Assembly: GCF_001676705.1 (NCBI RefSeq)
Contig: NZ_CP016170.1
Span: 1 to 64,000, forward strand
Direction of reading: 5' to 3'
Length of the DNA: 64,000 nt
From: Bordetella bronchialis
GTDB lineage: Bacteria > Pseudomonadota > Gammaproteobacteria > Burkholderiales > Burkholderiaceae_B
Part shown: piece by piece, positions 7,968-49,700 of the stretch
Layout of the letters: each line of letters starts with the position of its first letter
Position numbering within the stretch: position 1 is the first letter of the stretch
Made by a program: the position numbers and the translations under genes
Notes under the pieces: model-generated
What the model was told of the DNA's origin: nothing
The model's input: the letters and a program-made list of their open reading frames with translations, nothing else
Database searches by the model: none

Positions 7968-7979
7968 GGCGGTGCCGAT

Positions 7980-26760: not shown

Positions 26761-27295
26761 CGTCTGTCTTGCTCATGCCGTCCGTCGGTGGAGATGCCTG
26801 TCGTGTCCGGCCCGCTCGGGCGGTCCAGGGCCTTCGCCCTGGACTGCCGCTTCGTCTTCCTCCTTCGGCGGCCGAAGTGGCGGTGTTTTTCTTGCGGCTT
26901 TTTTGCCCGGCCGTCCTCCGTACGGAAGCCCTCGCGCGCCCTCGGACGGGCCGGCCCCGACAGGCATCTCCCCCGCCGGACTCACCGGGTGCCTTAGAGC
27001 CGGTTGCTGGGACGGTCTGTGTGCTTGGCACTTCGTGGGGCGCTTGTCGCTCGATAAGAAGAATCTTGGGGTGCCCGCCGGTTCGGAGCCGCCCTGCGCG
27101 GCTCCGAACCGGCTACGCGGTGGTGGCGTGCGGCGGGTGCACGCCTGCGATGGTTCTGCGCCCGGAGTGGAAGCGTTGCCTGCGCAGATCGGGGGAGAAA
27201 CAAGTCGGTGTGGCGGGCCGCCAGCCGGCCCGCCACACCGTAGGCACCGTGGCATGCCACGGATGCTGGCGTAGGTGCCATGCGCCGCTAGCGCG
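26761..27295 (+). repeat. Palindromic element locus 1, left arm
   Basis: This non-coding arm repeats in inverted form at 27471-28082 and is related to arms at 45850 and 48767. From the outside it holds: the boundary motif TTGCTCATGCCGTCCG; a ~180-bp outer fold closed by GGAGATGCCTGTCG (26790-26803) with its complement (26958-26971), which itself contains smaller hairpins (TCCAGGGC/GCCCTGGA and CTTCGGCGGCCGAAG); a 15-bp-stem hairpin (27078-27112, loop CCTGC); and a 35-bp palindrome (27206-27240). Reading frames here look spurious. Confidence 0.85.
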
Positions 27296-27395
27296 ATTGC
27301 ACGCACCGTTTCCCATCGAATCGCGGCCAGGCCACCGTGCCTTGCCGAGGGTGGTCGCTATAGGTGCGGTCATGGTTGAGCACGGCGTTCGGATG

Positions 27396-27452
27396 CTTCA
27401 AACACAAAAATCCTGACAGTCCCGGACGCTTCGAACACAAGATTCCGGGCGG
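27396..27452. mobile_element. IS256-type end remnants in locus 1 core
   Basis: CACAAAAATCCTGACAGTCCC (from 27402) closely resembles the right end of the intact IS at 47296-48668 (CACAAAATTCCTGACACTCC), and a second, weaker copy (GAACACAAGATTCCGGG) follows at 27429-27452. No transposase is left between the arms. This suggests an IS256-family element once occupied the core. Confidence 0.5.
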
Positions 27453-27470
27453 TTCCAAGATCCCGGCATT

Positions 27471-28082
27471 CGCGCTAGCGGCATATGGCACCTATGCCAG
27501 CATCCGTGGCAAGCCTCGGTGCCTTACGGTGTGGCGGGCCGGCGGGCGGCCCGCCACACCGCCTTGTCTCCCCCCCAACCGGCCGGACAAGATTCCACTC
27601 CGCTTCCTCGACCTCCGCATTACCGGCAATCGTCGACTGCCAACGCCCGTGGCATCACCGGTAACCGTCGCATCACAAGCAATCGTCGAATTACCACTCC
27701 CCGTCGCATTACCAGCAACCACCGCATGCCCTGAGTGCGTAGGCGTTTCTGGGCCGCGCAGGGCGGCCCAGAAACGACGGGCAACGCAAGATCTTTCTTA
27801 CCCTGAACACGCGACCACGAAGGGCCAAGAACACCGCCCGCCCCAGCGACCGCCTCTAAGGCAAACCGTGAGTCCGGCGGGGGAGATGCCTGTCGGGGCC
27901 GGCCCGTCCGAGGGCGCGCGAGGGCTTCCGTACGTAGGACGGCCGGGCAAAAAAGCCGCAAGAACCCCAACGCCCGTTCGGCCGCCGAAGGAGGAAGACG
28001 ACGCGGTAGTCCAGCGCGAAGGCGCTGGACCGCCCGAGCGGGCCGGCCCCGACAGGCATCTCCCCCGACGGATGGCATGAAC
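27471..28082 (-). repeat. Palindromic element locus 1, right arm
   Basis: This is the inverted counterpart of the left arm: inner border CGCGCTAGCGGC; 35-bp palindrome 27527-27561 with the same 15-bp stem but a different loop; a degenerate 18-bp tandem array (about 27615-27725, units like CGCATTACCAGCAA); a hairpin with 14-bp stem at 27744-27776; and the outer fold closed by GGAGATGCCTGTCG (27882-27895) and its complement (28050-28063). It ends at the boundary motif and a short tandem array. Locus 1 lies between convergent genes. Confidence 0.85.
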
Positions 28083-28148
28083 AAGACACACGACCGCCAT
28101 CACAAAGACACACGACCGCCATCACAAAGACACACGACCGCCATCACC
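28083..28148 (+). repeat. 22-bp tandem array at edge of locus 1
   Basis: Three near-perfect 22-bp units containing GACACACGACCGCCATCAC occur side by side. The unit is a variant of the arm's boundary motif, as is the larger array at the edge of locus 2. The rest of the stretch to 28216 is unremarkable. Confidence 0.85.
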
Positions 28149-28216
28149 AAGACGACAACAGCTATAGCAACCTAACGACGGCACCATCCAAGAAGGGCAT
28201 GCGCGAAGAAAGGCAA

Positions 28217-28780
28217 TCACCCTTCCCCCGGCCGCATAAGCTTCCCCGCCAGCCCGTTCGTCGTCGTTTCCGAGAACTTCGACATCAGGCGGGATCGGTA
28301 CATCTCCACGGTTCGAGGGCTTAGGTTGAGATGCCTGGCCACCATCTTGCTCGTCTTGCCTTCGGCAATCAGCAGCGCGATCTCGCGCTCCCGATCGTTC
28401 AGGTTCGGCAGCACCGGATGCGGCGAACTCAGGTCTTCGAAAGTCCAGATGCATAGGGCCAGCGGGTCCGCCGGCGTCAGGGAGCGGCCGACCAGGCGGC
28501 ACCAGAAGAGTTCGCCGTCCAGCCGCTTCATGATCCGGTCGCACGCATATATGCCGCGCGCGTTCAAGGCCGCGGCAGTGCCTTCCGTCGCGCGGGCCAT
28601 GTCGCGGCGTGTGGGGTACAAGGCATCGAACGAGGCGTCGTTCAGCTCGCCGGGCGGGTAGCGGAAGATCGATTCCAGGCGGGCGTTGGCCTGTTGGATG
28701 ACCCGCCATCGCGACACGCACAGTCCGGCTGGTGCCAGCATGAATGCCTGCCTGTAGTCGAGCTGCGGCTGCGTGTCCAT
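28217..28780 (-). CDS. PAS-LuxR type transcriptional regulator
   Basis: This 187-aa regulator joins an N-terminal PAS-like sensor region (AGLCVSRWRVIQQANARLESIFRY, ARGIYACDRIMKRLDGELFWCRLVGRSL) to a C-terminal LuxR/FixJ HTH (LNDREREIALLIAEGKTSKMVARHLNLSPRTVEMYRSRLM). It lacks a receiver domain. It stands just upstream of the leftward operon start side at 28835, with the same orientation, and downstream of it. A small cytosolic signal sensor controlling nearby catabolism is a fair guess. Confidence 0.85.
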   Translation of the reverse strand: MDTQPQLDYRQAFMLAPAGLCVSRWRVIQQANARLESIFRYPPGELNDASFDALYPTRRDMARATEGTAAALNARGIYACDRIMKRLDGELFWCRLVGRSLTPADPLALCIWTFEDLSSPHPVLPNLNDREREIALLIAEGKTSKMVARHLNLSPRTVEMYRSRLMSKFSETTTNGLAGKLMRPGEG

Positions 28781-28834
28781 GCGGCCCCCGCGATGGCGTG
28801 CCCGGATCTGGCACGTTAGCCGAAATCTACGCCA

Positions 28835-29815
28835 CTAGTCGCTGGTCGTGATATGCGCCTTCTGTATGATTTCGCGCGCGGTATCGATCTCGCGGGCCAG
28901 GAATTTGGCGTAGTCATCGGCGTTGCCGCCCGCCGCCTCGAAGCCCAGGTCGGCGATGCGCCGGGCGGCCTCCGGTGTCTTCAGCCTGGCGTCGAAGCCG
29001 GCCGCCAACTGTTGGACGATGGCGTCCGGGACGCCCTTGGGCGCGATGACCCCGTAGGAAATGACGCCCGCCACTTGCGGCACCCCGGCCTCGGCGAATG
29101 TCGGTACGTCGGGGAGCGAGGCAAGCCGGTGCGTGCCCGTGACGGCCAGGGCGCGCAGGCGTCCGGACTGGATATGGGCCAGCACCGTCGATGGCGCGGA
29201 GAAATTCACTTGCGTCTCGCCGGCCACCACCGCCATTACCGATGGCGCGCCGCCGCGGTACGGTACGTGGACGAGCCCCGCGCCGGTCGCCATGTTGAAC
29301 TGCTCGCCCGCCAGATGCAGCGCCGTGCCATTGCCCGCCGAGCTGAAGTTGTAGCGGCCGGGCTGGGCCTTGGCCAGCGCCACCAGTTCGGACACGCTAT
29401 GCGCCGGCACGTCCTTGTTCACGGACAGCACAATGGGAGAGGTCGCGGCCAGGATGATGGCGCGGAAATCCTGGCGCGTGTCGTAGGGCAGCTTCGCGCC
29501 CAGCAACGTCGCGTTGATCGGGAAGGCGCTGTCCACCACGCCCAGGGTGTAGCCGTTGGGTTGTGCGGTCGCCACGATATTCGTCCCGGCCACCGAGGCC
29601 CCGCCGGCGCGGTTCTCCACGATGATGCGGTCGCCCAGGCCGCCGCCGGGCGTGCTGGCGAGCAGGCGCGCGATGACGTCGGATGCCCCGCCCGGGGCAT
29701 AGGGCACCACGATGCGTATCGCTTGCGACGGGAAGGCGTCGGCGGCGTGGCCGGGTGCGGCCAGCGCGCAGGACAGCGCAACGGCCGCCGCGCGCAAGGG
29801 GATGCGCAGATTCAT
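28835..29815 (-). CDS. Bug-family tripartite tricarboxylate receptor
   Basis: This 326-aa periplasmic receptor has the signal peptide MNLRIPLRAAAVALSCALAA...GHAADAFPS. Bug landmarks: IRIVVPYAPGGASDVIAR, VENRAGGASVAGTNIVA, VIAPKGVPDAIVQQL. The reading frame is open far upstream, but ATG 29815 is set by the signal peptide. It lies at the distal end of a leftward operon of sugar-acid-type enzymes and should supply their substrate. Orphan of TctAB genes. Confidence 0.93.
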   Translation of the reverse strand: MNLRIPLRAAAVALSCALAAPGHAADAFPSQAIRIVVPYAPGGASDVIARLLASTPGGGLGDRIIVENRAGGASVAGTNIVATAQPNGYTLGVVDSAFPINATLLGAKLPYDTRQDFRAIILAATSPIVLSVNKDVPAHSVSELVALAKAQPGRYNFSSAGNGTALHLAGEQFNMATGAGLVHVPYRGGAPSVMAVVAGETQVNFSAPSTVLAHIQSGRLRALAVTGTHRLASLPDVPTFAEAGVPQVAGVISYGVIAPKGVPDAIVQQLAAGFDARLKTPEAARRIADLGFEAAGGNADDYAKFLAREIDTAREIIQKAHITTSD

Positions 29816-29835
29816 GAGGTCTCCTCCGGTTGTTC

Positions 29836-30933
29836 TTATTCCACCGCCGCGTAGCGGCGTAGCGCCTGCGGGTCGGGGTCGAAGCCCAGGCCCGGCACAT
29901 CGGGGACCCGCACCGCGCCGTCGCGCGGCAAGGTCGCGCCGCCGGAAAGCTCCACCGGCATCTCGCAATAGAAGCGTTCCAGTATGGGGTCGGTCCGTAT
30001 GGTCGCCAGTACGTGCATCGTGGCCAGCAGTCCCGGACCGAAATAAGCGCTGTGGGGCATCAGCCGGATGTCGCGTTGCGCGGCATCGTGCGCCACCTCC
30101 AGCAGGGCCGTGATGCCGCCGGTCTTGATCACGCTGGGCTGGGCGTAGGCAATGCCCGCGCTGTCCAGCACGCGACGGAACTCCACCGGGTTGCCGACGT
30201 TCTCGCCCATCGCCAGCGGCGTTTCGATGCAGCGCGCCAGTTCCGCCATCGCGGTGAAATCGTCGACCGGGAACAGCGGCTCTTCCAGCCACATCGGCTT
30301 GTAGTCCGCGACGTCGTGCGCGAAGCGCTCGGCCTGGCGTAGATCGAAGGGACAATTCAGGTCCACCATCAGGCCGATGTCCGGGCCGATGGCCGCGCGC
30401 GACTCCCGGACCGAAGCGACGTCGCGTTCGTGCAGCTTCACGTAGCGGTAGCCCTGGTCCACCGCGCGCGCGGCGAAGCGGGCCGCCAGGGCGGGATCCC
30501 GATAAGGCAGCAGGCTGGCGTAGGCGGGGATATCGCGCGTGCGCACGGGGCCGATCAGGGCGTGCACGGGCAGCCCGGCGGCCTTGGCCGCGATGTCCCA
30601 CAAAGCGATGTCCACCGCCGATATCGCATATTGCAGCGGGCCGGCGCGGCCGAAGTGGTAGAGCGTGCGGTTCAGCTTGTCCACGATCTGCTCGCGCTGC
30701 AGCGCGTCCTCGCCAAGGCATAGCGGTGCCGCCAGGCGGTCGATGAGCAGGCGTGTCACCGGCCAGATGCGCACGCCGAAGGCGTCGCCCCAGCCCACGA
30801 TGCCGCTGTCGGTCGTGACCTTGACCAGCAGGCTTTCCATGTTGGTGCGCGGCTTGCCGCCCAGCGGCAGCGGCGCGGCGCCGCTGTCGTAGGGGATGGC
30901 GATGGGCAGGGTTTCGATGGCGACGATTTTCAT
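29836..30933 (-). CDS. Mandelate racemase/muconate lactonizing family enzyme 1
   Basis: This 365-aa enolase-superfamily enzyme has a capping domain followed by a TIM barrel with metal ligands in MVDLN (Asp), WLEEP (Glu) and GENVG (Glu), and the barrel-end His in MPHSAYFG. At the usual K-x-K catalytic site this protein has K-L-H (YVKLHERD), so one acid/base residue differs. Family members dehydrate acid sugars or racemise hydroxy acids. It is 20 bp from the Bug gene and 9 bp from the hydroxyacid dehydrogenase gene, clearly one transcript. Confidence 0.92.
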   Translation of the reverse strand: MKIVAIETLPIAIPYDSGAAPLPLGGKPRTNMESLLVKVTTDSGIVGWGDAFGVRIWPVTRLLIDRLAAPLCLGEDALQREQIVDKLNRTLYHFGRAGPLQYAISAVDIALWDIAAKAAGLPVHALIGPVRTRDIPAYASLLPYRDPALAARFAARAVDQGYRYVKLHERDVASVRESRAAIGPDIGLMVDLNCPFDLRQAERFAHDVADYKPMWLEEPLFPVDDFTAMAELARCIETPLAMGENVGNPVEFRRVLDSAGIAYAQPSVIKTGGITALLEVAHDAAQRDIRLMPHSAYFGPGLLATMHVLATIRTDPILERFYCEMPVELSGGATLPRDGAVRVPDVPGLGFDPDPQALRRYAAVE

Positions 30934-30942
30934 GGCGTGTCC

Positions 30943-31989
30943 TCAGGTGGCGCGCGTGCCGCCATCGGCGCGGCGTGCGGCCGGCGTGGCGTCGTTGTCG
31001 AACGGTTCGCCGTTCAGCCAGTGCATGAAGTTGCGCAGGAATATTTCGGTGAATCGCGCCGCATTGCCGGGCGATGCGCCGCAGTTGTGCGGCGATAGCC
31101 AGGTGTGGGGCGCGTTCCACAGCGGCGATCCGGCGGGCAGCGGTTCGGTGGCGAAGACATCCAGGTAGGCAGACCGCAGGCGGCCCTGGTGCAGCGCGGC
31201 AGCCAATGCGGCCTCGTCCAGGAGTTCGCCACGGCCGATATTGGCGACGCCCGCGTGGGCGGGAAGCAGCGCGATGCGGCGCGCATCCAGCAAGTGGCGC
31301 GTCTCGGGTGTCAGGGGACACGCCAGCACCAGCCAATCGCAGGCGGGCAGCAGCTCGTCTAGGACGTCCGGGCGGCAGATACGGTCGAAGTGCGGCACGG
31401 GCGCTGCGCCGCGCCGTACGCCTATGGTCGTCAGGCCCACGGCCTTGAGCAGCCGGCCGATCTCGCGGCCGATGGGGCCAAGGCCGACGATGATGGCGGT
31501 CTGTTCGTGCAGGTCGCGCGCCATCTGCGCGGCGGTCAGCGGCCGCCAGCGGCGTTCGCCCTGCGCGGCCAGCCAATGGGTGAACCCGCGCGCCTGCGCC
31601 AGAATGGCGCCGACGACGGTTTGCGCGATGGGCAGGGCATTGCCGCCCGACGACGTGGTCAGCCGCACGGCGCGGCGCAGCGTGGGCTGGTATAGCGGAT
31701 TATCGATGCCGGCCGAGCCGACATGCAGCCACTCGGCCCGCGGCGCCGCATCGAAGACGTCGAAAAAGGCGCGGCCCGCGGCCGGGTTTCCGCCGGTCAG
31801 CAGGTCGCGCGAATAGTAGGCCAGCCGTATCGCGGCCTGCTCGTCCGCGGCCAGGGCCCGCCCCGGCTCGGCCGGCGCGACGACCAGGCGCAGCACGTGG
31901 CCCGCCGCGCGAGCCAGGGCGGACAGGCGCTCGCCCAGTTCGTCGTGCACGGATTGCGATATCAACAGCCCGACCGCTTCGTTGCTCAT
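30943..31989 (-). CDS. D-isomer-specific 2-hydroxyacid dehydrogenase
   Basis: This 348-aa NAD(P)-dependent 2-hydroxyacid dehydrogenase has the Rossmann motif GLGPIGREIGRLL, the active-site Arg in IGRGELLDE, Glu in DVFATEPLP and His in LSPHNCGASPG. It interconverts a 2-hydroxy and 2-oxo acid. ATG 31989 is preceded by AAGGAGGCGACAT on its strand. Placed between two enolase-superfamily genes, it probably acts on the 2-keto-3-deoxy product or the starting acid sugar. Confidence 0.9.
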   Translation of the reverse strand: MSNEAVGLLISQSVHDELGERLSALARAAGHVLRLVVAPAEPGRALAADEQAAIRLAYYSRDLLTGGNPAAGRAFFDVFDAAPRAEWLHVGSAGIDNPLYQPTLRRAVRLTTSSGGNALPIAQTVVGAILAQARGFTHWLAAQGERRWRPLTAAQMARDLHEQTAIIVGLGPIGREIGRLLKAVGLTTIGVRRGAAPVPHFDRICRPDVLDELLPACDWLVLACPLTPETRHLLDARRIALLPAHAGVANIGRGELLDEAALAAALHQGRLRSAYLDVFATEPLPAGSPLWNAPHTWLSPHNCGASPGNAARFTEIFLRNFMHWLNGEPFDNDATPAARRADGGTRAT

Positions 31990-32030
31990 GTCGCCTCCTT
32001 GTAGGCGTAGGGCCGGCCCGATCGCGCGGA

Positions 32031-33197: not shown

Positions 33198-33211
33198 CGG
33201 ATGTCCTGCGT

Positions 33212-34183: not shown

Positions 34184-34273
34184 GATGTCTCCTTGCCGGC
34201 ACGTCGCGCGCTCCGGCTGGGGCGCGTCGCGTGGCGGTCGGTGATAGGTGGATGGTAGGAAGATCGCCGGCGA

Positions 34274-34297
34274 TGGTCTAATACCAAAATGGTCCTG
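34274..34297. promoter_or_regulatory. Operator candidate between Bug operon and LysR
   Basis: TGGT-CTAAT-ACCA followed by AAAATGGTCC gives overlapping short inverted repeats in the most AT-rich part of the 220-bp divergent intergenic region. It is a reasonable LysR-box candidate for the operon read leftward from 34183. The rest of the gap shows nothing else. Confidence 0.35.
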
Positions 34298-34403
34298 CGC
34301 GATACGCGACGCGTTTCACCGCACGCGGCGGGCACCATAACGGCAGGCGCTGGCAGCGTTGCCGCGCGGCGCAACACCCCCGTACAGAGGACCGCCCACC
34401 GCC

Positions 34404-35321: not shown

Positions 35322-35346
35322 CGCCTGGCCCCCGGCGCCGCGCGCG

Positions 35347-36348: not shown

Positions 36349-36386
36349 GGTGCGGATCCTATGGTTGAATGCGCGGCACCGCGTGC

Positions 36387-38663: not shown

Positions 38664-38719
38664 TCGCTTGGCGCGCGTGGGCGCCGGCGCGTGACGCCGG
38701 CGCGGGCACGCCGGTCCCG

Positions 38720-39543: not shown

Positions 39544-39574
39544 CCAAAATAGATACTCGTTCCAAAAATAGTAC
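39544..39574. promoter_or_regulatory. Tandem CCAAAAATAG sites upstream of coxG
   Basis: CCAAAATAGATAC (39544-39556) and CCAAAAATAGTAC (39562-39574) are two near-identical direct repeats with 18-bp spacing in an AT-rich gap upstream of coxG. A similar pair at the same spacing stands upstream of the deacetylase gene. Two helical turns of spacing suits cooperative binding of a dimeric regulator. Confidence 0.45.
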
Positions 39575-39609
39575 GGTACAAATTCCGGCGGCGCCGGCCA
39601 GGGCGTCCC

Positions 39610-41991
39610 TCAGGGGCGCAGGTCATGGCGCTGTTCGCGGTCCCGCGCCTCCCGCGCCGCCAGATGGCGCCGCACGTCCAGCGGCCTGATGGGCAGCCGC
39701 GTCACGAAGCCGGGTGCGTCCAGGGCGTCGTCCACCGCGGCCGCGATGGCGGCGCCCGCGGCATTGGTCCCGCCCTCGCCGGCTCCCTTCAGGCCCATGG
39801 GGTTCAGGGGGCTGGGCGCGTCCTCCGTGATCAGCACATCGACGGGCGGCATCTCATGGGCGGTGACCATGATGTAGTCGGCGAAGGTGGTCGAAAGCGG
39901 CTGGCCTTCGGCGTCGTAGGTGAACTCTTCGAACAGCGCGCCGCCTATGCCTTGCGCCAAGCCGCCGACGATCTGGCCTTCGATCAGCATGGGATTGACC
40001 GCGCGGCCGACGTCATAGGCCACCAGGTATTTCTCGACCAGGACCTGCCCGGTGTCGCCGTCCACGCGGACCTGTGCCACATGCACCCCGTAGGGATAGT
40101 TCATATGGTCGCTGTAGAACCAGCCTTCGGCCGACAGGCCGGGCTCGTGGCCGTCGCTGGTCCGCGACGAGGGATGCAGGTAGCGGGCGACTTCCTCCAG
40201 GCCGATCGCGCGGCCGGCCGGATCGGCGGTCCGGCGGATGCGGCCGCCTTCCACCGTGAGATCGGCCGGCGTGGCGTCCAGCAGCTTGGCGGCCACGTCC
40301 AGGGCCTTGGCGCGCACCTTGCGCGCCGCGATCTGGGTGGCCGAGCCGGACATCACGGTCACGCGCGACGCGTGCGCGCCGTTGCCGAACTCGATCTGGT
40401 CGGTGCGTCCGTGGATGACCCGCACGCGGCGGTAGTCCACGCCCAGCTCCTGGGCGCAGATCTGCGCCAGCGCGGTTTCCATGCCCTGGCCCACCGAGCC
40501 GGCGCCGGTCACGAGTTCTATCGCGCCGCTGACGTCCACCGTCAGGCGGACCATGTCGGAGGGGCCCAGGCCGGACTTCTCCACGAACATCGCCAGGCCC
40601 AGGCCCACGCGCTCGCCGGCGGCGCGGCGCTGCGTCAGCTCGGCCCGCAGCCGGGGCCAGTCCAGCCTGGCCAGCGTCTTGTCGATCAGCCCGTCGTAGT
40701 CGCCGGAATCCAGCACGACGTCCGTTCCCAGCGCATCCAGCGGGCGCGCGTAGGGCATCTCTTGCGATTTGATCAGGTTGCGGCGGCGCGCCTCGACGGG
40801 GTCGATGCCGACACGGCGGGCGATCGCATCCATCAGGCGTTCGCGCACGAAGGTGGTTTCGTAGCGGCCGGGCGAACGGTAGGTGGCGGCGGGCGTCTTG
40901 TTGACCAGGCGATAGTGGCCGGCCACTTCGTAGGCGGGTACGCGGTAGGGGCCCAGCAGCAGTCCCGCCGACATGTCGGCCACGCGCGCGCCGTGGGTGC
41001 GGGTGTAGGCGCCCTGGGCATGGAAGAAGGTATTGCGTATGCCCAGGATGCGCCCCTGCGCATCGATGGCGGCCTCGATCTGGTGCTGCTGCTCGCGCGA
41101 ATGGTTGGTGGCCATGAGGTTCTCGCGGCGGTCCTCTATCCATTTGACCGGGCGGCGCAGGCGCAGCGCGGCCAGGCACACCAGCACGTCCTCGGGATAG
41201 ATCTCGCCGCGCACGCCGAAGCCGCCGCCCACGTGCCCTTCGTACAGGTGGAAACTGCTGGGGCTGCGGCCGAGCATCTTGGCCATTTCGTCGCGGTTCC
41301 AATGCGACTTCTTGGCGGCGCCGTGCATCTCCAGCACGTCGCGCGCGGCGTCGTAGCGCGCCACGGCGCCGCGGCATTCCAGCGGCACGCCGGAATGCCG
41401 GCCGACGGCCAGATCCAGCGCGATGACGGCATGCGCCGCGGCGAAAGCGGCCGCCACGTCGCCATAGCCCTTGCGGATCACCGTGGGTTCGGTGTTCAGG
41501 CCGGGCAGGAACTCGCCGGGCTCGTCGCGGGCCGACAGGATGGGCGGCAAGGGATCGATCCGGACCTCGACCAGGTCCGCCGCGTCTTCCGCCACGTAGG
41601 GACTGTCGGCGAATACCACCGCCACCGGCTCGCCGACGTAGCGCACGCGCTCCCGCGCCAGGATGGGCTGGCAATAGGGTTCGAGCCCGGTGACCTTGGT
41701 GGCGCGGAAAGGGATGGGCGGAATATCGGCGACGTCCGCGCCTGTCCACGCGGCCACCACGCCGCGCAGCGCGAGCGCGGGCGCGGTATCGATGCCGACG
41801 ATGCGGCCGTGCGCCGTTTGCGCGCGCACGACGCGCATATGCAATTGCCGCGGGAAATTCACATCGGCGGCGAAGCAGGCCTCGCCACGGACCAGCGGGG
41901 GATCTTCCAGCCGCGCAACGGAGCGGCCGACGATGCGTTCCCCGGTGGCGGGCGCGTCGACGCGCGGGACTTCGTACACGTGGGCGCTCAT
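39610..41991 (-). CDS. Molybdenum hydroxylase large subunit (CoxL/XdhB-like)
   Basis: This 793-aa molybdopterin-binding catalytic subunit begins GERIVGRSVARLEDPPLVRGEACF and carries the catalytic Glu near its C terminus (GAGEGGTNAAG, about residue 735). The active-site loop near residues 365-377 reads TYRSPGRYE, not the AYxCSFR signature of true form I CO dehydrogenase, so CO oxidation is unlikely; hydroxylation of an N-heterocycle, aldehyde or aromatic CoA ester is more likely. ATG 41991 lies 4 bp after the iron-sulphur subunit. Confidence 0.92.
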   Translation of the reverse strand: MSAHVYEVPRVDAPATGERIVGRSVARLEDPPLVRGEACFAADVNFPRQLHMRVVRAQTAHGRIVGIDTAPALALRGVVAAWTGADVADIPPIPFRATKVTGLEPYCQPILARERVRYVGEPVAVVFADSPYVAEDAADLVEVRIDPLPPILSARDEPGEFLPGLNTEPTVIRKGYGDVAAAFAAAHAVIALDLAVGRHSGVPLECRGAVARYDAARDVLEMHGAAKKSHWNRDEMAKMLGRSPSSFHLYEGHVGGGFGVRGEIYPEDVLVCLAALRLRRPVKWIEDRRENLMATNHSREQQHQIEAAIDAQGRILGIRNTFFHAQGAYTRTHGARVADMSAGLLLGPYRVPAYEVAGHYRLVNKTPAATYRSPGRYETTFVRERLMDAIARRVGIDPVEARRRNLIKSQEMPYARPLDALGTDVVLDSGDYDGLIDKTLARLDWPRLRAELTQRRAAGERVGLGLAMFVEKSGLGPSDMVRLTVDVSGAIELVTGAGSVGQGMETALAQICAQELGVDYRRVRVIHGRTDQIEFGNGAHASRVTVMSGSATQIAARKVRAKALDVAAKLLDATPADLTVEGGRIRRTADPAGRAIGLEEVARYLHPSSRTSDGHEPGLSAEGWFYSDHMNYPYGVHVAQVRVDGDTGQVLVEKYLVAYDVGRAVNPMLIEGQIVGGLAQGIGGALFEEFTYDAEGQPLSTTFADYIMVTAHEMPPVDVLITEDAPSPLNPMGLKGAGEGGTNAAGAAIAAAVDDALDAPGFVTRLPIRPLDVRRHLAAREARDREQRHDLRP

Positions 41992-41995
41992 GGGG

Positions 41996-42526
41996 TCAGC
42001 CTCCCTTGGCGGCGTTCGGCGCGGCATGGCCGGCCGCCATGGCCGCGCGGGCGGCGCGCACGGCGGCCAGGATATTCTGGTAGCCCGTGCAGCGGCATAG
42101 ATTGGAGGACAGCACGTCCAGCAATTCCGCATCGCTGATGTCGGGGTTGCGCTCCAGCGCCCCCGTGGCCAGCATCAGGAAACCCGGCGTGCAGAAGCCG
42201 CACTGCAAGGCATGATGGTCCATGAAGGCCTGCTGCATGGGGTGGAAACCGGCGCCGTCGGCCAGGCCTTCCACGGTGCGGATGCAAGAGCCTTCGGCCT
42301 GCACCGCGAACATCAGGCAGGACCGCACGGGCTCGCCATCCACCAGCACGGTGCAGGCGCCGCATACGCCATGCTCGCAGCCGATGTGCGTGCCGGTCTG
42401 TCCGCAGTCGTCGCGGATGGCATCGACCAGCGTCTTGCGCGCTTCCACGCGTATCGGATATGCCACCCCGTTCACTTCCAGGACGACGTCGTGGTCCATG
42501 CCGGCTGTTTCGTCACGCTCGTTCAT
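41996..42526 (-). CDS. Molybdenum hydroxylase [2Fe-2S] subunit (CoxS-like)
   Basis: This 176-aa electron-transfer subunit has two [2Fe-2S] clusters: the plant-ferredoxin type CEHGVCGACTVL...RSC at about residues 50-75, and the C-terminal CGFCTPG...CRCTGY. It passes electrons from the molybdenum site to the FAD subunit. The order FAD, FeS, Mo subunit is that of Cox/Ndh-type operons. ATG 42526 is preceded by AGGGGAT. Confidence 0.95.
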   Translation of the reverse strand: MNERDETAGMDHDVVLEVNGVAYPIRVEARKTLVDAIRDDCGQTGTHIGCEHGVCGACTVLVDGEPVRSCLMFAVQAEGSCIRTVEGLADGAGFHPMQQAFMDHHALQCGFCTPGFLMLATGALERNPDISDAELLDVLSSNLCRCTGYQNILAAVRAARAAMAAGHAAPNAAKGG

Positions 42527-42545
42527 CGGTATCCCCTGCGATGCG

Positions 42546-43430: not shown

Positions 43431-43473
43431 CGCCGCCTTGCCCCTGCGCCGCACCCGTGAGCGAGTGCGCGGT

Positions 43474-43504
43474 GTTATATTTATGGGATTATAACTATTT
43501 TTGG
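43474..43504. promoter_or_regulatory. Tandem CCAAAAATAG-like sites upstream of deacetylase
   Basis: Read on the minus strand, CCAAAAATAGTTAT (43491-43504) and CCATAAATATAAC (43474-43486) stand 18 bp apart, between the divergent FAD subunit and deacetylase genes. This mirrors the pair upstream of coxG, so both transcription units may share one regulator. Confidence 0.45.
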
Positions 43505-43622
43505 TACGGTCACAACGCGGGTACCGCACCAAGCCTGGCATTGCTTTTCCTGACGGGACGCGCCGCCGCGCCCCTTTCCCAAACCGGCCCCGGCCACCCG
43601 AGCACCTCCGGAGAGAACCGCC

Positions 43623-44513
43623 ATGCTGTTGCCCAGCCACGATCGCTATCCCTATCGCGCCATCGGCGCGCGCAAAGACTACAGCTGGCCGGAAGGCAAG
43701 CGCCTGGCGATGCACATCGGCCTGAATATCGAGATATTCGCCTTCGGTACGGGCCTGAGCCACAACCTGACCGTGCCGCTGCCCGCGCCCGACCAGCGCG
43801 CCTTCGCGTGGACGGACTACGGCAACCGGATCGGCGTGTGGCGGATCCTGGATATGCTGGACGAGCTGGGCCTGCCCGCGGCGCACCTTTGCAACACCGA
43901 GATCTTCAAGTACTGCCCGGCGCTGATCGCGCCCATCAAGGCCCGCGGCGACGAGTTCATCGGCCACGGCCGCACCAACGCCGAGCGCCACGGTTCGATG
44001 TGGGAACCGGACGAGGCACGCTTCCTGACCGAGGTGCGCGATGCGATCCGCGAACACACGGGCCAGGAGGTACGCGGCTGGATGGCGCCGTGGATGTCCC
44101 ACAGCCGCCATACGCCCGACCTGCTGCAGGAGACGGGATACAAGTTCCTGATGGACTGGCCGGCGGACGACCAGCCGATCTGGATGAAGACGCGCGGCGG
44201 CCGCATCATGTCGGTGCCCTATCCGCTGGAGTTGAACGATTCCCCGCAGATGCTGGTGCGACATCACACGCCGGACCAGTTCAGCCAAATGGTGATCGAT
44301 CAATTCGAAGAGATGCTGGACCAGAGCGCCAAGCAGCCGCTGGTGTTCGGGATCGCGCTGCACACGATGGTGACGGGACAGCCGTATCGCCTGCGCGCGA
44401 TGCGCCGCGCGCTGAAGTACATCGCCGAGCATCCGCGTCGCAACGAGGTCTGGTTCACCCGGCCGGGCGCGATCTACGATCACTGCGTCAATCTTCCGGA
44501 AGGCACGATGTAG
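43623..44513 (+). CDS. Polysaccharide-deacetylase-family protein (allantoinase PuuE-like), copy A
   Basis: This 296-aa protein of the NodB-like deacetylase superfamily is of the type to which non-metal-dependent allantoinase PuuE belongs. Visible: GLNIEIFAFG, DYGNRIGVWRILDMLDELGLPAA, GDEFIGHGRTNAERHG, WMAPWMSHSRHTPDLLQETGYKFLMDW. It starts after CGGAGAGAACC. It is about 70% identical by eye to the gene at 58037. Next to a molybdenum hydroxylase, a ring-opening amidohydrolase in N-heterocycle breakdown is a reasonable inference. Confidence 0.85.
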   Translation: MLLPSHDRYPYRAIGARKDYSWPEGKRLAMHIGLNIEIFAFGTGLSHNLTVPLPAPDQRAFAWTDYGNRIGVWRILDMLDELGLPAAHLCNTEIFKYCPALIAPIKARGDEFIGHGRTNAERHGSMWEPDEARFLTEVRDAIREHTGQEVRGWMAPWMSHSRHTPDLLQETGYKFLMDWPADDQPIWMKTRGGRIMSVPYPLELNDSPQMLVRHHTPDQFSQMVIDQFEEMLDQSAKQPLVFGIALHTMVTGQPYRLRAMRRALKYIAEHPRRNEVWFTRPGAIYDHCVNLPEGTM

Positions 44514-44556
44514 GCGGAATGCGCGCCGGCATTGCCGGCGGCCCTTCGCTGGAGGC

Positions 44557-44580
44557 ATGCCGGGCATGGCCCGGCATTTT
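44557..44580. terminator. Terminator between convergent deacetylase and Bug genes
   Basis: ATGCCGGGC (44557-44565) pairs with GCCCGGCAT (44569-44577) over a 3-base loop and runs into TTTT. It lies between convergent genes, so it mainly ends the deacetylase transcript. Confidence 0.75.
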
Positions 44581-44587
44581 CGTTCCA

Positions 44588-45658
44588 TCAATCCAGCGTG
44601 ATGTTGGCCTTTTTGACGATGGCATCGAAGTTGGCAAAATTCTTCACGGTACGTTCGGTGAAGACGTCCGGGCTGGTGTACTGGACTTCCAGCCCCTGCG
44701 ATTCGAGCAGCGACTTCAGGTCCGGCCGCTGCAGCGCGGCGTCGATGGCTTTCGATAGGGCGTCGACGATGGCGGGCGGCGTACCCTTGGGCGCATAAAA
44801 GCCGAACAGATTCTCCGCGCTGAAGTTCTTGACGCCTGCTTCGGTGATGGTGGGCACCTCGGGCAACATGGGCAACCTATGGTCGCCGGCCACGGCCAGG
44901 ACGCGCACCGCGCCGCTCTTCATGTGCGGGACGGCGGCGGGCGCGCTAAGGAACATCAGGCTGGAGTTGCCGGAGATCAAATCCATCAATGCCTGCGAGC
45001 CGCCGCGGTAGGGCACATGGGTGATCTGTACGCCGGTGGTCAGCATCAGGAGTTCGCCTTCCAGGTGCGATAGCGTGCCGATGCCGATGGAGGCAAAGTT
45101 ATGCTTGCCGGGCTCCCGCTTGAGAAGGTCGAGAAGCTGCTGGACATTCTGCGGCGCGGATTTGGACGGAACGACCAGAATGTGCGGCGCGAGCGCGACA
45201 CCCGCAACGGCCGCGAAGTCGTCCCGCAGGTTGACCGACGGCGGTACCTTGGAAGCCGCCTTGAAGATGGCGGAGTCGGTCGTGCACCCGAACAGAATCG
45301 TGTAGCCGTCCGCCGGCGCATGCGCGACAACAGACATCCCGATCAAGCCGCTGCCGCCGGTACGGTTCTCCACAACCACGGACTGCTTCATCGCTTCGGA
45401 GATGCGCTGGCCGATGCTGCGCGCCAGCGTGTCGGTGGCGCCCCCAACCGGATACGGAACGACGATGGTGATGGGACGCTCCGGAAAAGCCGCCCGCGCC
45501 GGCCCCGCCGGCAGTATGGCCGCCGCGGCGGCCGCCAGCGCAAGCGAAGAAAGCGCGAACAATCGCCGGACACGGCAAGCGATACCGCTGTCGCTCGACA
45601 AGCCGGATCGCAAAAAGGCGGGACCGGCACTAGGGGCACGATGCGGGAATGCGGACAT
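44588..45658 (-). CDS. Bug-family tripartite tricarboxylate receptor
   Basis: This 356-aa periplasmic receptor has landmarks PITIVVPYPVGGATDTLAR, VENRTGGSGLIGM, FYAPKGTPPAIVDAL. The signal peptide is preceded by an unusually long ~30-residue N-terminal region, so the true start may lie further in, though no better start codon is visible. It converges on the deacetylase gene. The upstream side at 45720-45744 carries the TTTTTGGTACGG motif shared with the molybdenum hydroxylase region. Confidence 0.9.
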   Translation of the reverse strand: MSAFPHRAPSAGPAFLRSGLSSDSGIACRVRRLFALSSLALAAAAAAILPAGPARAAFPERPITIVVPYPVGGATDTLARSIGQRISEAMKQSVVVENRTGGSGLIGMSVVAHAPADGYTILFGCTTDSAIFKAASKVPPSVNLRDDFAAVAGVALAPHILVVPSKSAPQNVQQLLDLLKREPGKHNFASIGIGTLSHLEGELLMLTTGVQITHVPYRGGSQALMDLISGNSSLMFLSAPAAVPHMKSGAVRVLAVAGDHRLPMLPEVPTITEAGVKNFSAENLFGFYAPKGTPPAIVDALSKAIDAALQRPDLKSLLESQGLEVQYTSPDVFTERTVKNFANFDAIVKKANITLD

Positions 45659-45719
45659 GGGCGTTCCTGAAGATGGCGTGGGTGGGTATGCGGCGGGAGC
45701 CGGGTGTAGTTCTACTGTT

Positions 45720-45744
45720 GGGATTTTTCCCGTTTTTGGTACGG
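45720..45744. promoter_or_regulatory. TTTTTGGTACGG site upstream of Bug gene
   Basis: The palindrome GGGA-TTTT-TCCC (45720-45731) abuts CGTTTTTGGTACGG (45731-45744), which matches the site at 43495-43508. It is about 65-85 bp upstream of the Bug start. A shared regulon with the hydroxylase and deacetylase genes is inferred. Confidence 0.4.
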
Positions 45745-45849
45745 TTCGCTACGTGGGTATTCCCTAGCGTCAGGTTGTGCGCTGCGGGGCGTTTTGTTGG
45801 GCGTGACGGTTGTGGAGGGGGCAGGCGTTGTTGGCTTGCTGATGTGGGT

Positions 45850-46606
45850 CGTCTGTCTTGCTCATGCCGTCCGTTCGGTTTGCTTATGCCGTTCGTCGGC
45901 TTGTTTATGCCGTCGTGGCTTGCTTATGCCGTCGTGGCTTGCTTATGCCGTCGTAGCTTGCTTATGCCGTCCGGCGGGGGAGATGCCTGGCGTGTCCGGC
46001 CCGGTCGGCCGGTCCAGCGCTTTCGCGCTGGACTACCGCGTCGTCTTCCTCGTCCGGCGGCCGAAGTGGCGGTGGTGTTCTAGCGGCTTTTTTGCCCGGC
46101 CGACCTCCCTACGGAAGCCCTCGCGCGGCCTCCGACGGGCCGGCCCCGCCAGGCATCTCCCCCGCCGGACTCACGGCTTGCCTTAGTCGCGGTTGCTGCG
46201 GCGGTCTTTGTGCTTGGCCCTTCGTGGGCGGCGTTTCGGGTTGAGAAGGATCTGCCGTTGCCCGTCGTTTTCGGGCCGCCCTGCGCGGCCCGAAAACGCC
46301 TACGCGGTGGGGGCATGCGGTGTTGCTGGTAATGCGACCGTTGCTGATGCGACGGTGGCCGGTGATGCGACGGTTGCGGGTGATGCGACGGGCGTTGGTA
46401 ATGCGACGGGTGCTGGCAATGCAACGGCTGCTGGTGATGCGAAGCCTGCTGGTAATGCGACGATTACTAGTAATGCGGAGGTCGAGGAATCGAAGTGAAA
46501 TCTTCGCCCGCGCAGGGTTGGGGGAGACAAGGCGGTGTGGCGGGCCGCCCCTCGGCCCGCCACACCGTGGCACCGAGGCTTGCAACGGATGCTCGCGATA
46601 GGTGAG
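45850..46606 (+). repeat. Palindromic element locus 2, left arm
   Basis: It is related to the locus 1 arms: boundary motif CTTGCTCATGCCG followed by a few 19-20-bp tandem copies (GCTTGCTTATGCCGTCGTG) to 45970; outer fold closed by GGAGATGCCTGGCG (45979-45992) and its complement (46147-46160); hairpin with 14-bp stem at 46266-46298 (loop CCTGC); an 18-bp tandem array with GATGCGACGG-type units (46320-46480); and the 35-bp palindrome at 46533-46567. No credible gene. The stretch 46607-46930 holds only small repeats of GGAGAGACG near 46640-46680. Confidence 0.85.
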
Positions 46607-47295
46607 ACGGTAAACCGATAAGGGATGGCGTCGGTATGTGAGGAGAGACGTTTAAAGGAGAGACGTTGAGAGGAGAGACGGTGCCGACATATCAGGCCGA
46701 TGGTGTTGGCGTAGCGGACGTCCAACACTGGCGTCGTCAGGATCGGCCATCGAATCGCGCCCCTTGAATAATCTGGCGCGCAACCGGGCAGACCAATGGG
46801 CCAACATGGGGACGCGCCGGTCGATGTCGGTGGCCCGCGTCGCCGAAGCGGTGCTGTGCCACATGACAGTATCAAGCCACCGTTACTGGAGTGGACGAAG
46901 GTGACCGTTGGACTGACGTGTATCCCCTTCTGGAACGGCCCCAATTCGCTGACCCCCGCAATGATGACCGGATCATCGCCATGTACGCACGGGGCATGAG
47001 CGTGCGCGAGATCCAGGCGTTCCTGGCCGAGAGCCACGGCACCGAGGTCTCGCCGGACTTCATCAGCTCGGTCACCGACGAGGTCATGGCCGAGACGATT
47101 GCCTGGCAGAACCGGCCGCTGGAGGCGATGTACCCGGTGGTGTTCTTCGACGCGCTGCGGGTTAAGATCCGCGACGACGGCGGGGTCACCAACAAGGCCG
47201 TGTACCTGGCTCTGGGCGTGCAGGCTGACGGCCAGCGCGACGTGCTGGGCCTGTGGGTCGAGCAGACCGAGGGGGCCAAGTTCTGGCTCAAGGTC

Positions 47296-48668
47296 GGGTG
47301 TGTCAGTATTTTTGTGCTTGAGGCATTAAAGGCCGGTCTATAAGAGCCCCAGCCCAGTGATGATATTTCAGCGATATGGATTGGTGAAGCGCTCTGCGTA
47401 GATGATCGCAAACTGGTTCATGGCTGCCTTCCACTCGTGAGTGGAACTGCCCCAGGTGCCGGTGATATTACGTAGCACCAGCCACAGCAGCTTGGTGGCC
47501 GCCTCGTCGGAGGGGAAGTGCCCGCGCGTTTTGACCGCCCGGCGCAGCTGGGCGTTGATGCTCTCGATGGCGTTGGTGGTATAGATGATCTTGCGGATCG
47601 CCGGCGGGAAGGTAAAAAACGGGATCACGCGGTCCCAGGCGCTGCGCCAAGCCTGCGCGATCGGCGCGTAGCGCTGTCCCCACAGGCCCTGTTCGAAGCG
47701 TGCCAGCTCGGCTTGCGCGGCCTCCACCGTTGGCGCACTGTAGATGGGCCTGAGCGCAGCAGCCACGGCACGGCGCTCCTTCCAGCTGGCATAGTCCAGG
47801 CTTGAGCGCATCAAATGCACGATGCAGGTCTGCAACGTCGTGGCAGGGAATACGGCGTTTAAGGCCTGCTCCATGCCCTTCAGGCCGTCGGTGACTGCAA
47901 TCAGGATGTCCTGCGTGCCACGAGTCTTGAGCTCGTTGAAGACCTTCATCCAGAATTTGGCGCCTTCGGTCTGCTCGATCCATAAGCCCAACACGTCGCG
48001 TGTGCCGTCGGCCAGGATGGCCAGGGCCAGATACACGGCCTTGTTTCTGACCACGCCGTCCTCGCGGATCTTCACCCGCAGCGCATCGAAGAACACCACC
48101 GGGTACATCGTCTCCAGCGGGCGGGTTTGCCAGGCTGTAACCTCCTCGACCACCGCATCGGTCACCGAGCTGATGAACTCTGGCGATACCTCAGTGCCGT
48201 ACTGCTCCAGAAGAAACGCCTGTATCTCGCGCACTGTCATGCCGCGCGCGTACATCGCGATGATCTTGTCATCGAACCCCGTGAAGCGCCGCTCATGCTT
48301 GGGAATCAGGATCGGGGCGAAGCTGCCGTCGCGATCGCGCGGCACATCTACCGAGATGGCCCCGTCGTCGGTCAGCACGGTCTTCGAGCTCGTGCCATTG
48401 CGTCGGTTCGTTGCCGTTTCAGACCGTTGGCCCGGTGCGTAACCCAGGTGATGACCCAGCTCCGCGCCCAGTGCCCGCTCGATCAACGCCTTCTTGAACG
48501 CCATCGACAGGTCCTGCACCGCCTCGGCCGTCATCGGCCCTTTGACCAATTGCTCGACCAACTCGGCAGGAATCGCCGGCAGCTCTTTAGGGGGATTCTT
48601 CTTTCGGGTTGCCATACATGCTCCGTTTTCGACATGTTAGGCCTCAAGCACAAAATTCCTGACACTCC
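47296..48668 (-). mobile_element. Complete IS256-family insertion sequence (1,373 bp)
   Basis: Terminal inverted repeats are GGGTGTCAGTATTTTTGTGC (left) and, inverted, GGAGTGTCAGGAATTTTGTGC (right), both continuing TTGAGGC. The 9-bp direct repeat CTCAAGGTC flanks the element at 47287-47295 and 48669-48677, the 8-9-bp duplication expected for IS256. One transposase gene fills it. It inserted into an older IS256-family transposase gene in the opposite orientation. Confidence 0.93.
47368..48615 (-). CDS. IS256-family transposase
   Basis: This intact 415-aa DDE-type transposase of the IS256/Mutator family carries the expected acidic residues: Asp in VVFFDALRVKI, Asp in IAVTDGLKGMEQAL, and Glu in TTNAIESINAQLRR. 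The C-x2-H-like segment TCIVHLMRSSL is also present. It is full length and free of stop codons, so the element may still be active. It shares strong similarity with the remnant it interrupts. Confidence 0.96.
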   Translation of the reverse strand: MATRKKNPPKELPAIPAELVEQLVKGPMTAEAVQDLSMAFKKALIERALGAELGHHLGYAPGQRSETATNRRNGTSSKTVLTDDGAISVDVPRDRDGSFAPILIPKHERRFTGFDDKIIAMYARGMTVREIQAFLLEQYGTEVSPEFISSVTDAVVEEVTAWQTRPLETMYPVVFFDALRVKIREDGVVRNKAVYLALAILADGTRDVLGLWIEQTEGAKFWMKVFNELKTRGTQDILIAVTDGLKGMEQALNAVFPATTLQTCIVHLMRSSLDYASWKERRAVAAALRPIYSAPTVEAAQAELARFEQGLWGQRYAPIAQAWRSAWDRVIPFFTFPPAIRKIIYTTNAIESINAQLRRAVKTRGHFPSDEAATKLLWLVLRNITGTWGSSTHEWKAAMNQFAIIYAERFTNPYR

Positions 48669-48766
48669 CTCAAGGTCTTCAACGAACTCAAGACCCGGGG
48701 GCGCCAGGACATCCTGATCGCCGTGGTTGACGGCCTGAACGGCCCCACTTCGCTGATCCCCGCAAT

Positions 48767-49400
48767 CGCGCGAGCGCCGCATCGCACCTATGCCATCACC
48801 CGTGGCAAGGCACGGTGCTACGGTGTGGCGGGCCGGTTGGCGGCCCGCCACACCGCCTTGTCTCCCCCAACCCTGCGCGGGCGAAGATTTCACTTCGATT
48901 CATCGACCTCCGCATTACTAGTAATCGTCGCATTACCAGCAGCCGTCGCATTACCAACGCCCGTCGTATCACCCGCAACCGTCGCATCACCGGCCACCGT
49001 CGCATCAGCAACGCTCGCATTACCAGCAACCACCGCATGCCCCCACCGCGTAGGCGTTTTTGGGCCGCGCAGGGCGGCCCAAAAACGACGGGCAACAGCA
49101 GATCTTTCTTAACCCGAAAACCCGCCCACGAAGGGCCAAGAACAAAGACGGTCGCAGCATCCGCGACTTAGGCACTCTGTGAGTCCGGCGGGGGAGATGC
49201 CTGGCGGGGCCGGCCCGTCGGAGGCCGCGCGAGGGCTTCCGTAGGGAGGTCGGCCGGGCAAAAAAGCCGCTAGAAAACCACCGCTCCTTCGGCCGCCGGA
49301 CGAGGAAGACGACGCGGTAGCCCAGCGCGAAGGCGCTGGGCCGGCCGACCGGGCCGGACACGCCAGGCATCTCCCCCGCCGGACGGCATAAGCAAGCCGA
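48767..49400 (-). repeat. Palindromic element locus 2, right arm
   Basis: This is the inverted counterpart of the arm at 45850: inner border CGCGCGAGCGCC right after the transposase remnant; 35-bp palindrome 48821-48855; an 18-bp-type array (about 48905-49040); hairpin with 14-bp stem at 49055-49087; outer fold closed by GGAGATGCCTGGCG (49193-49206) with its complement (49361-49374). It is nearly identical to the left arm, including the outer stem variant that differs from locus 1. Confidence 0.85.
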
Positions 49401-49700
49401 CGACGGCATAAGCAAGCCGACGACGGCATAAGCAAGCCGACGACGGCATAAGCAAGCCGACGACGGCATAAGCAAGCCGACGACGGCATAAGCAAGCCGA
49501 CGACGGCATAAGCAAGCCGACGACGGCATAAGCAAGCCGACGACGGCATAAGCAAGCCGACGACGGCATAAGCAAGCCGACGACGGCATAAGCAAGCCGA
49601 CGACGGCATAAGCAAGCCGACGACGGCATAAGCAAGCCGACGACGGCATAAGCAAGCCGCCGGACGACATAAGCAAGCCGACGACGCCATAAACAAATCC
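49383..49700 (+). repeat. 20-bp tandem array (14 near-perfect units)
   Basis: About 14 near-identical 20-bp units containing GACGGCATAAGCAAGCC, then two or three degenerate units, extend the boundary motif of the right arm. No spacers separate the units, so it is not a CRISPR array. 49700-49794 holds only vague repeats (CATCCACGCA...AAGATCACCC) and no gene. Copy number is likely variable between strains. Confidence 0.95.

What the first reader, a model, noticed from the sequence alone, without database searches (positions are those of the whole stretch)
26761..49700. Two paired-arm palindromic loci (26.76-28.15 kb and 45.85-49.7 kb) form a repeat family with an IS256-related core
Seen: each locus has two inverted arms of about 0.55-0.75 kb built from the same ordered parts (boundary motif, outer fold, hairpin, short array, 35-bp palindrome), and both cores contain IS256-type material. 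Inference: the arms may be giant terminal repeats of a mobile element whose transposase decayed, or a non-autonomous element using IS256 functions in trans. I do not recognise this element.
Basis: partly seen in the sequence, partly recalled or inferred. Interest (0 to 1): 0.85.

Follow-up and report, generated by a model that had tools for sequence, protein, structure and literature searches.

The report
Paired foldback repeats in Bordetella chromosome
Two places between genes in a Bordetella-like chromosome carry a non-coding repeat made of two long mirror-image arms full of hairpins; the jumping gene (IS256) found inside them looks like a later guest, and how these repeats arise and stay matched is an open, testable question.

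Summary
Two intergenic loci each carry two inverted arms: 279 nt at 90% and 367 nt at 94% complementarity in the longest ungapped blocks, reaching about 0.55-0.75 kb with gaps. Each arm has a 202-bp unit with 35-bp ends, a long hairpin and a 35-bp palindrome; three of four also have an 18-bp array. Hairpins are maintained: 7 of 106 pairs changed on both sides, reached by 0 of 500 shuffles. Arms of one locus are sisters: 28 informative sites against 4 and 5. IS256-type DNA is in both cores, but the intact IS256 has its own short ends and an 8-bp duplication, and no arm contains anything like an IS256 end: it looks like a passenger. The five arm-like ORFs found in a protein database all carry the name Bordetella bronchialis. 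Best reading: a non-coding foldback-type repeat with arm-to-arm homogenisation. Mobility, empty sites and obligatory pairing could not be tested.

The parts
26760..27300 (+). Locus 1 left arm (L1); lacks the 18-bp array
27466..28153 (-). Locus 1 right arm (R1), inverted relative to L1
45850..46600 (+). Locus 2 left arm (L2)
48767..49700 (-). Locus 2 right arm (R2), inverted relative to L2; ends in a 20-bp x 15.7 array
26780..26981 (+). 202-bp unit of L1 with 35-bp inverted ends and an inner hairpin
27872..28073 (-). 202-bp unit of R1
45969..46170 (+). 202-bp unit of L2; RNA fold -144.3 kcal/mol, z -9.3
49183..49384 (-). 202-bp unit of R2
27077..27113 (.). long hairpin of L1 (stem sequence differs from the other arms, pairing kept)
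27744..27776 (.). long hairpin of R1
46266..46298 (.). long hairpin of L2
49055..49087 (.). long hairpin of R2
27206..27240 (.). 35-bp palindrome of L1: 15-bp stem invariant in the four arms, variable 5-base loop
27527..27561 (.). 35-bp palindrome of R1
46533..46567 (.). 35-bp palindrome of L2
48821..48855 (.). 35-bp palindrome of R2
27647..27720 (-). 18-bp array of R1 (4.1 copies)
46322..46477 (+). 18-bp array of L2 (8.8 copies)
48911..49031 (-). 18-bp array of R2 (6.9 copies)
28083..28153 (-). outer 22-bp array of R1 (3.2 copies)
45857..45971 (+). outer 19-bp array of L2 (5.8 copies)
49382..49696 (-). outer 20-bp array of R2 (15.7 copies, 97% match)
27395..27423 (.). IS256-family terminal repeat left in the locus 1 core; a weaker copy (9 mismatches to the IS256 end) follows at 27428-27456
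47296..48669 (-). intact IS256-family element, transposase 47368-48615; 8-bp duplication TCAAGGTC at 47288-47295 and 48670-48677
46963..47295 (+). older IS256 transposase fragment (80% aa identity to the intact one over 111 residues), continued after the intact IS at 48670 to about 48743
46933..46962 (+). 30-bp direct repeat edging the older IS256 fragment; partner at 48737-48766 (93%)

Best explanation
The two loci are copies of a non-coding, foldback-type interspersed repeat of a Bordetella lineage. Shown: each copy is two inverted arms of hairpin modules around a variable core; the hairpins are kept by paired changes; arms of one locus resemble each other more than arms of the other locus. 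Inferred: the arms are kept alike by exchange or templated repair between them (cruciform or template switching). The family spreads as a non-autonomous element or by recombination between copies, and the stacked hairpins act in place on transcript ends or DNA structure. IS256 DNA in the core is a passenger: IS256 elements land in these long intergenic palindromes and decay there.
For: Paired arms of common modular make-up at two loci. Folds far more stable than shuffles: z -9.3 and -10.0 for the L2 unit on the two strands, -8.5 and -5.2 for one strand of the L2 and R1 arms, 20 shuffles each. Compensatory change: 7 of 106 pairs, 0 of 500 shuffles; in the short hairpin and the long hairpin 6 of 6 varying pairs changed on both sides with 100% of cells paired; slid controls give 0-1 such pairs. 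Within-locus kinship: site pattern L1R1|L2R2 28, the others 4 and 5 (P 1.7e-7 against equal thirds). Uneven L2-R2 divergence: linker 13 of 94 against 11 of 435 over four other segments (P 4e-5; palindrome, inner edge and outermost 16 columns not in that test). Further copies: five ORFs in B. bronchialis records all contain the 202-bp unit, two of them running through the palindrome. IS256 as passenger: own ends, 8-bp duplication, no IS256-end similarity in the arms.
Against: Four sequences is a thin base for covariation and kinship, and shuffles do not model relatedness; one measure, further pair types, was reached by 33 of 500 shuffles. Uneven divergence could be uneven constraint: the linker varies 14-26% in all six comparisons. 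The inner edge of L2-R2 (19 of 57) and parts of L1-R1 (26-28% in linker and hairpin flank, 12 of 43 before the palindrome) are not homogenised. No direct evidence of movement: no duplication of 6 bp or more in the outer flanks tested, no empty site seen. Promoter-like sites are not in excess (0 against 0.2; 2 against 1.0); terminator-like sites are 3 against 2.0 (sd 1.7) and 8 against 3.4 (sd 1.9). IS256-type DNA lies at nearly the same inner edge of R1 and R2, which could mean it is ancestral. That the family is confined to Bordetella is hardly tested: no Bordetella genome could be searched.
Confidence: 0.57

Rival explanations
1. Giant-terminal-repeat transposon of the IS256/Mutator line: the arms are its long ends, its transposase decayed or acts in trans, as in eukaryotic Mutator-like elements with long repeat-bearing ends.
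For: IS256-type DNA in both cores, and near the same inner edge of both right arms. Mutator-like elements, whose transposases are related to IS256, have ends over 100 bp, often with subterminal tandem repeats (PMC5225508, passages).
Against: The intact IS256 uses its own short ends and made an 8-bp duplication inside the core; no arm segment resembles the IS256 end (13-14 of 29 mismatches); no flanking duplication found around the loci. Locus 2's older piece is an internal transposase fragment, not an end.
Confidence: 0.12
2. A structured-RNA or termination block: the palindromes are selected as bidirectional terminators or transcript stabilisers, and pairing of arms is incidental duplication.
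For: Locus 1 lies between convergent genes 25721-26707 (+) and 28217-28780 (-); maintained hairpins; a terminator-like hairpin at 27240-27206; 8 terminator-like sites in locus 2 against 3.4 (sd 1.9) in shuffles.
Against: Locus 2 lies between two genes on the same strand (44588-45658 and 49795-50817); locus 1 has no excess of terminator-like sites (3 against 2.0); no Rfam family at gathering score in the window (sub-threshold matches only in locus 1). Does not explain why arms of one locus are sisters.
Confidence: 0.18
3. Each locus is a local inverted duplication made by IS256 activity or by template switching in a pre-existing single repeat, so there is no element, only two similar accidents.
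For: Arms of one locus are sisters; large palindromes can arise by template switching (general knowledge).
Against: Both loci have the same arm order, and three of four arms share the inner segment next to the 35-bp palindrome; two independent accidents ending at the same point are unlikely unless that point is a hotspot.
Confidence: 0.11

Closest known systems
Foldback-like transposons, e.g. Galileo of Drosophila (PMC2775673, passages)
   Same: Long internally repetitive inverted ends (two GalileoN copies: about 575 bp with a middle of about 350 bp), no coding capacity in the copies first described; ends within copies 1 and 2 differ by 0.2-0.7% but by about 7% between those copies; nested insertions.
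   Different: Eukaryotic, P-superfamily, 7-bp duplications and a known transposase; two other GalileoN copies are chimeric and show the opposite pattern. Here no duplication or transposase is shown, and the arms hold maintained hairpins.
BIME/REP and Bordetella Bor repeats (PMC1590033, passages; REP size from the abstract start of PMC3733652)
   Same: Non-coding, extragenic, hairpin-forming, repeated; IS elements insert in REPs (PMC1525189, passages).
   Different: Bor repeats are 26-30 bp and REPs 20-40 bp; here one arm is 0.55-0.75 kb with several hairpins and arrays, and comes in inverted pairs. The Bor consensus letters were not available to compare.
IS256-family insertion sequences, e.g. 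the IS256 transposase region of a Cupriavidus taiwanensis plasmid (79.8% DNA identity)
   Same: The element at 47296-48669 has a PF00872 transposase, short ends and an 8-bp duplication.
   Different: It is only the passenger; the arms are not part of it.
Mutator-like elements (PMC5225508, passages)
   Same: Long ends, often with tandem repeats, and an IS256-related transposase.
   Different: Eukaryotic; here no link between arms and transposase is shown.

Membership tests
IS256-family insertion sequence (element 47296-48669 only) | Transposase_mut protein | tested here: met
   PF00872, E 1.3e-127
IS256-family insertion sequence (element 47296-48669 only) | short inverted ends and 8-9 bp target duplication | tested here: met
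   29-bp ends with 3 mismatches, TCAAGGTC on both sides
Whole loci as IS256-type / Mutator-like transposon | arm ends resemble the IS256 ends | tested here: not met
   best 13-14 mismatches of 29 in each arm
Whole loci as IS256-type / Mutator-like transposon | 8-9 bp duplication flanking the arms | tested here: inconclusive
   no direct match of 6 bp or more in the outer flanks, but the true edges are blurred by tandem arrays
Foldback-like element | long, internally repetitive inverted repeats around a variable middle | tested here: met
   the middles of the two loci differ
Foldback-like element | ends within a copy more alike than between copies | tested here: met
   28 against 4 and 5 informative sites, on four arms only; not in every segment
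Foldback-like element | mobility with target duplication / empty sites | not testable with these tools
   no close relative genome held or reached
BIME / REP | short (20-40 bp) palindromes in many extragenic copies | tested here: inconclusive
   the 35-bp palindrome fits in size, but was found only 4 times in this window, each time inside an arm; a genome-wide count was not possible
Known structured RNA (Rfam) | match at gathering score | tested here: not met
   0 matches in the window; best sub-threshold score in locus 1 is 25.9 bits against 70; locus 2 not searched below threshold

The most novel reading that the evidence does not exclude
A bacterial foldback element: a mobile, non-autonomous repeat whose very long modular ends carry tandem arrays and maintained hairpins, homogenise with each other within each copy, and are moved by an IS256/Mutator-type transposase.
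Probability: 0.12. Interest if true: 0.82.

Novelty: new variant of a known kind. Interest (0 to 1): 0.5.

Why it matters
Long near-perfect palindromes are usually unstable in bacteria (general knowledge). Here two of them persist about 20 kb apart near dnaA, with arms kept alike within each locus and hairpins kept by paired changes. Reading all copies in complete Bordetella genomes would show whether bacteria have foldback-type elements with concerted ends, and whether hairpins are held by selection or by templated correction. Such repeats can also break short-read assemblies, so they may be under-counted (inference).

Tried and rejected
Rejected: arms as IS256 ends. Rejected: arms as genes. 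Their open frames run in several frames and on both strands; the only protein matches are five unnamed-function ORFs of B. bronchialis in different frames (in 45 and 46 only the 7993 candidates sharing most words were scored). Rejected: known Rfam RNA. No sign of plasmid, phage or E. coli origin: no match for arm R2 (48791-49400) in plasmids and phages or for locus 1 in E. coli. Whole locus 2 matched 1162 plasmid records, and the 20 rows shown all fall on the IS256. A loose search of the 202-bp unit in plasmids gave 61 records, and the 8 shown have E of 0.05 or worse. Five patterns (three of the unit, one of the palindrome, one of the array) found nothing in viral contigs. Core pieces: the left core of locus 2 has no plasmid match, and that of locus 1 only the IS256 end.

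An error of mine. I took G291 as a Burkholderiales centre because it gave the best hit to a frame at 39625-42135 (+); that frame is probably antisense to the real gene on the other strand. The family list of G291 contains G001, the genome of a Rhizobiales contig, and the gyrB matches stop before the GyrB insert domain. So searches were most likely searches of Rhizobiales and say little about Bordetella's kin. Among 39 other phylum genomes, 29 of 39 gave a gyrB match at E 1e-150 or better, the best being G248 at 77% over nearly the whole gene, insert domain included. In 145 genomes of G248's family (drawn from a larger group), 9 of 145 had an arm match, all short (about 24-79 bases, 42-47 bits) and judged chance. 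Whether that family includes Bordetella is not known.

Led nowhere: the single genome-collection scan, spent on the asparaginase next to locus 2, returned two Rhizobiales MAG contigs only. Arm DNA: 15 of 391 and 4 of 136, short matches of 41-45.5 bits judged chance. Only the 2 to 4 best candidates per genome were scored in the rows shown. Covariance model: 0 of 136. gyrB by family: 2 of 18, 0 of 5, 0 of 136 at strict cut-offs. No positive genome is known, so empty answers are weak. The target-duplication test was crude (shuffles of 2-base blocks). One of six comparisons, around the R1 unit, gave an 8-bp match reached by 2 of 300 shuffles; it lies 17-18 bases outside the unit edges with one side in a tandem array, and I discount it. 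Literature searches listed no title that describes this repeat; lists were capped at 10-15 rows and most subscription journals are not held.

Papers: passages only of PMC2267715, PMC1590033, PMC1525189, PMC3733652, PMC5225508, PMC2775673; whole text of PMC5064114; all others search listing only.
Full report
What is there. The window opens with dnaA at base 1 and gyrB at 2735, so it looks like the start of a finished chromosome record; a 371-aa ORF at 1530-2645 lies where dnaN is expected but was not searched. GC is 67%. Its own genome is not held. The organism is inferred, not proven, to be a Bordetella: the only proteins that three searches of a 5.8-billion-protein database found to resemble the arms come from B. 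bronchialis.

Two intergenic loci carry paired inverted arms. Locus 1 lies between an alcohol dehydrogenase gene (25721-26707, +) and a LuxR-type regulator gene (28217-28780, -). Locus 2 lies between a TctC-type receptor gene (44588-45658, -) and an asparaginase gene (49795-50817, -). Ungapped inverted blocks reach 279 nt at 90% (locus 1) and 367 nt at 94% (locus 2). With gaps, L2 and R2 align over 739 columns at 89%, and R1 aligns to them over 749 and 710 columns at 77% and 80%. L1 matches the others over its outer 366-381 nt at 83-86% and again over 109-139 nt around the palindrome at 82-86%.

Anatomy of one arm, outside to inside: a tandem array of 19-22 bp units (5.8 copies in L2, 15.7 in R2, 3.2 in R1; L1 shows one boundary motif); a 202-bp unit with 35-bp inverted ends and an inner hairpin; a linker; a long hairpin; an 18-bp array (8.8, 6.9 and 4.1 copies in L2, R2, R1; absent in L1); a 35-bp palindrome with a 15-bp stem invariant in the four arms; and an inner segment, lost in L2. 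A covariance model of the 202-bp unit finds its four copies strongly (215-222 bits; the model was built from them). Everything else is the complement of these four (48-57 bits) or at most 18.7 bits, some of it the arms' other hairpins.

Structure. The L2 unit folds at -144.3 kcal/mol on one strand and -145.9 on the other, z -9.3 and -10.0. Arms L2 and R1, one strand each, give z -8.5 and -5.2 against 20 shuffles. On the four-arm alignment, of 106 pairs 7 show a change on both sides, against a shuffled mean of 3.2 and 0 of 500 shuffles as high; sliding the partners by 1-3 columns gives 0 or 1. In the short hairpin of the unit and in the long hairpin, all 6 varying pairs changed on both sides and all cells pair. 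Against a single shared fold: helices 2, 4 and 6 of the L2 fold pair only in 83-88% of cells, and the count of further pair types was reached by 33 of 500 shuffles. Only the outer stem and the three hairpins are well supported, and the 35-bp stem never varies, so it says nothing by itself. Perfect hairpins can be kept by selection or by templated correction during replication; these data do not separate the two.

Kinship of arms. Summed over eight segments of my choosing, informative sites favour L1 with R1 and L2 with R2 28 times, and the two other groupings 4 and 5 times. In the 202-bp unit the arms differ by 7% and 3% within loci and 10-11% between loci. The pattern is not uniform: L1 is the odd one in the hairpin flank (28% from R1), and L2 has lost similarity at its inner edge (33% from R2). 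In L2-R2 the linker differs at 13 of 94 sites, four other segments together at 11 of 435 (P 4e-5), which fits patchy conversion or patchy constraint. Ends alike within a copy and different between copies are described for two GalileoN copies of Drosophila (PMC2775673, passages).

IS256. The intact element is 47296-48669, with 29-bp ends, transposase PF00872 and an 8-bp duplication TCAAGGTC. It sits inside an older transposase fragment in the opposite orientation (46963-47295 and 48670 to about 48743; 80% aa identity over 111 residues), which is edged by a 30-bp direct repeat (46933-46962, 48737-48766, 93%). In locus 1 the core keeps a terminal repeat at 27395-27423 (4 mismatches of 29; best in 100 shuffled windows was 8) and a weaker one 33 bp on. 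A 27-base stretch over this motif, at 96% identity, lies about 23 bases outside the start of an IS256-family transposase gene on an Eleftheria terrae plasmid, which supports that it is an IS256-type end. Outside the two loci the window shows no IS256 end closer than 11 mismatches. No 29-mer in any arm is closer than 13. By rough gene calls (49 ORFs picked by me from the lists, the IS transposase left out) the loci are 47% of the non-coding bases, 40% without the IS, so finding IS256 there needs no special targeting. An IS256-family element, ISRm5, is nevertheless listed with REP association, 5/7 (PMC1525189).

Relatives. Five ORFs with the name B. bronchialis in the source (four from one draft, one tagged BAU08 on a 5,966,919-base contig) match the arms. 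All five cover the 202-bp unit. P0001 and P0003 run through the palindrome to the inner segment. P0004 holds array to outer edge. P0002 leaves the arm after the long hairpin. P0005 holds the outer edge and unit. So arms occur at further places and not all copies look complete; whether they are paired there cannot be seen from proteins. The largest chromosome reported in the 2016 announcement of B. bronchialis AU17676 and other strains is also 5,966,919 bp (PMC5064114, whole text). Elsewhere: nothing in plasmids, phages or E. coli.

Mechanism. Most likely this is a non-coding foldback-type repeat whose two arms recombine or template each other. It is spread by unknown means, and IS256 elements settle in its core. 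Shown: anatomy, paired changes, within-locus kinship, passenger nature of the intact IS256. Inferred: conversion between arms, dispersal as an element, effect on transcripts or DNA structure. The bold alternative, a bacterial foldback element driven by an IS256/Mutator-type transposase, is not excluded.

Verdict. A real and unusual structure; novelty as a new variant of extragenic palindromic or foldback-type repeats. The most valuable next step is a census of arms in complete Bordetella genomes.

Noticed in passing
window 5286-6118, 7137-7968, 11906-12850; also 60329-60762 on the other strand: A repeat of about 0.4-0.8 kb, 96-98% identical among the first three places in the best pieces and about 82% to the fourth; the first and fourth ORFs (121 and 115 aa) match DUF4148, a small family repeated close to gyrB.
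   Followed up: partly
window 46933-46962 and 48737-48766: A 30-bp direct repeat edges an internal IS256 transposase fragment, as if a fragment had been captured at a staggered break rather than transposed.
   Followed up: no
window 27391-27456: Two 33-bp tandem copies (25 of 33 identical) of an IS256-type end in the core of locus 1.
   Followed up: partly
window 49382-49696: A 20-bp array of 15.7 copies at 97% match at the outer edge of R2, against 5.8 copies in L2: possibly a fast-changing length marker.
   Followed up: no
window 10692-12081: A stretch of about 1.4 kb without a gene in my rough calls, between a sulfatase-like gene and a 121-aa ORF of the DUF4148-type repeat.
   Followed up: no
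window 39613-42132: The molybdenum-binding dehydrogenase gene on the - strand has a long open frame on the other strand that also finds matches at E 1e-138 in another genome: a trap for six-frame searches in GC-rich DNA.
   Followed up: partly
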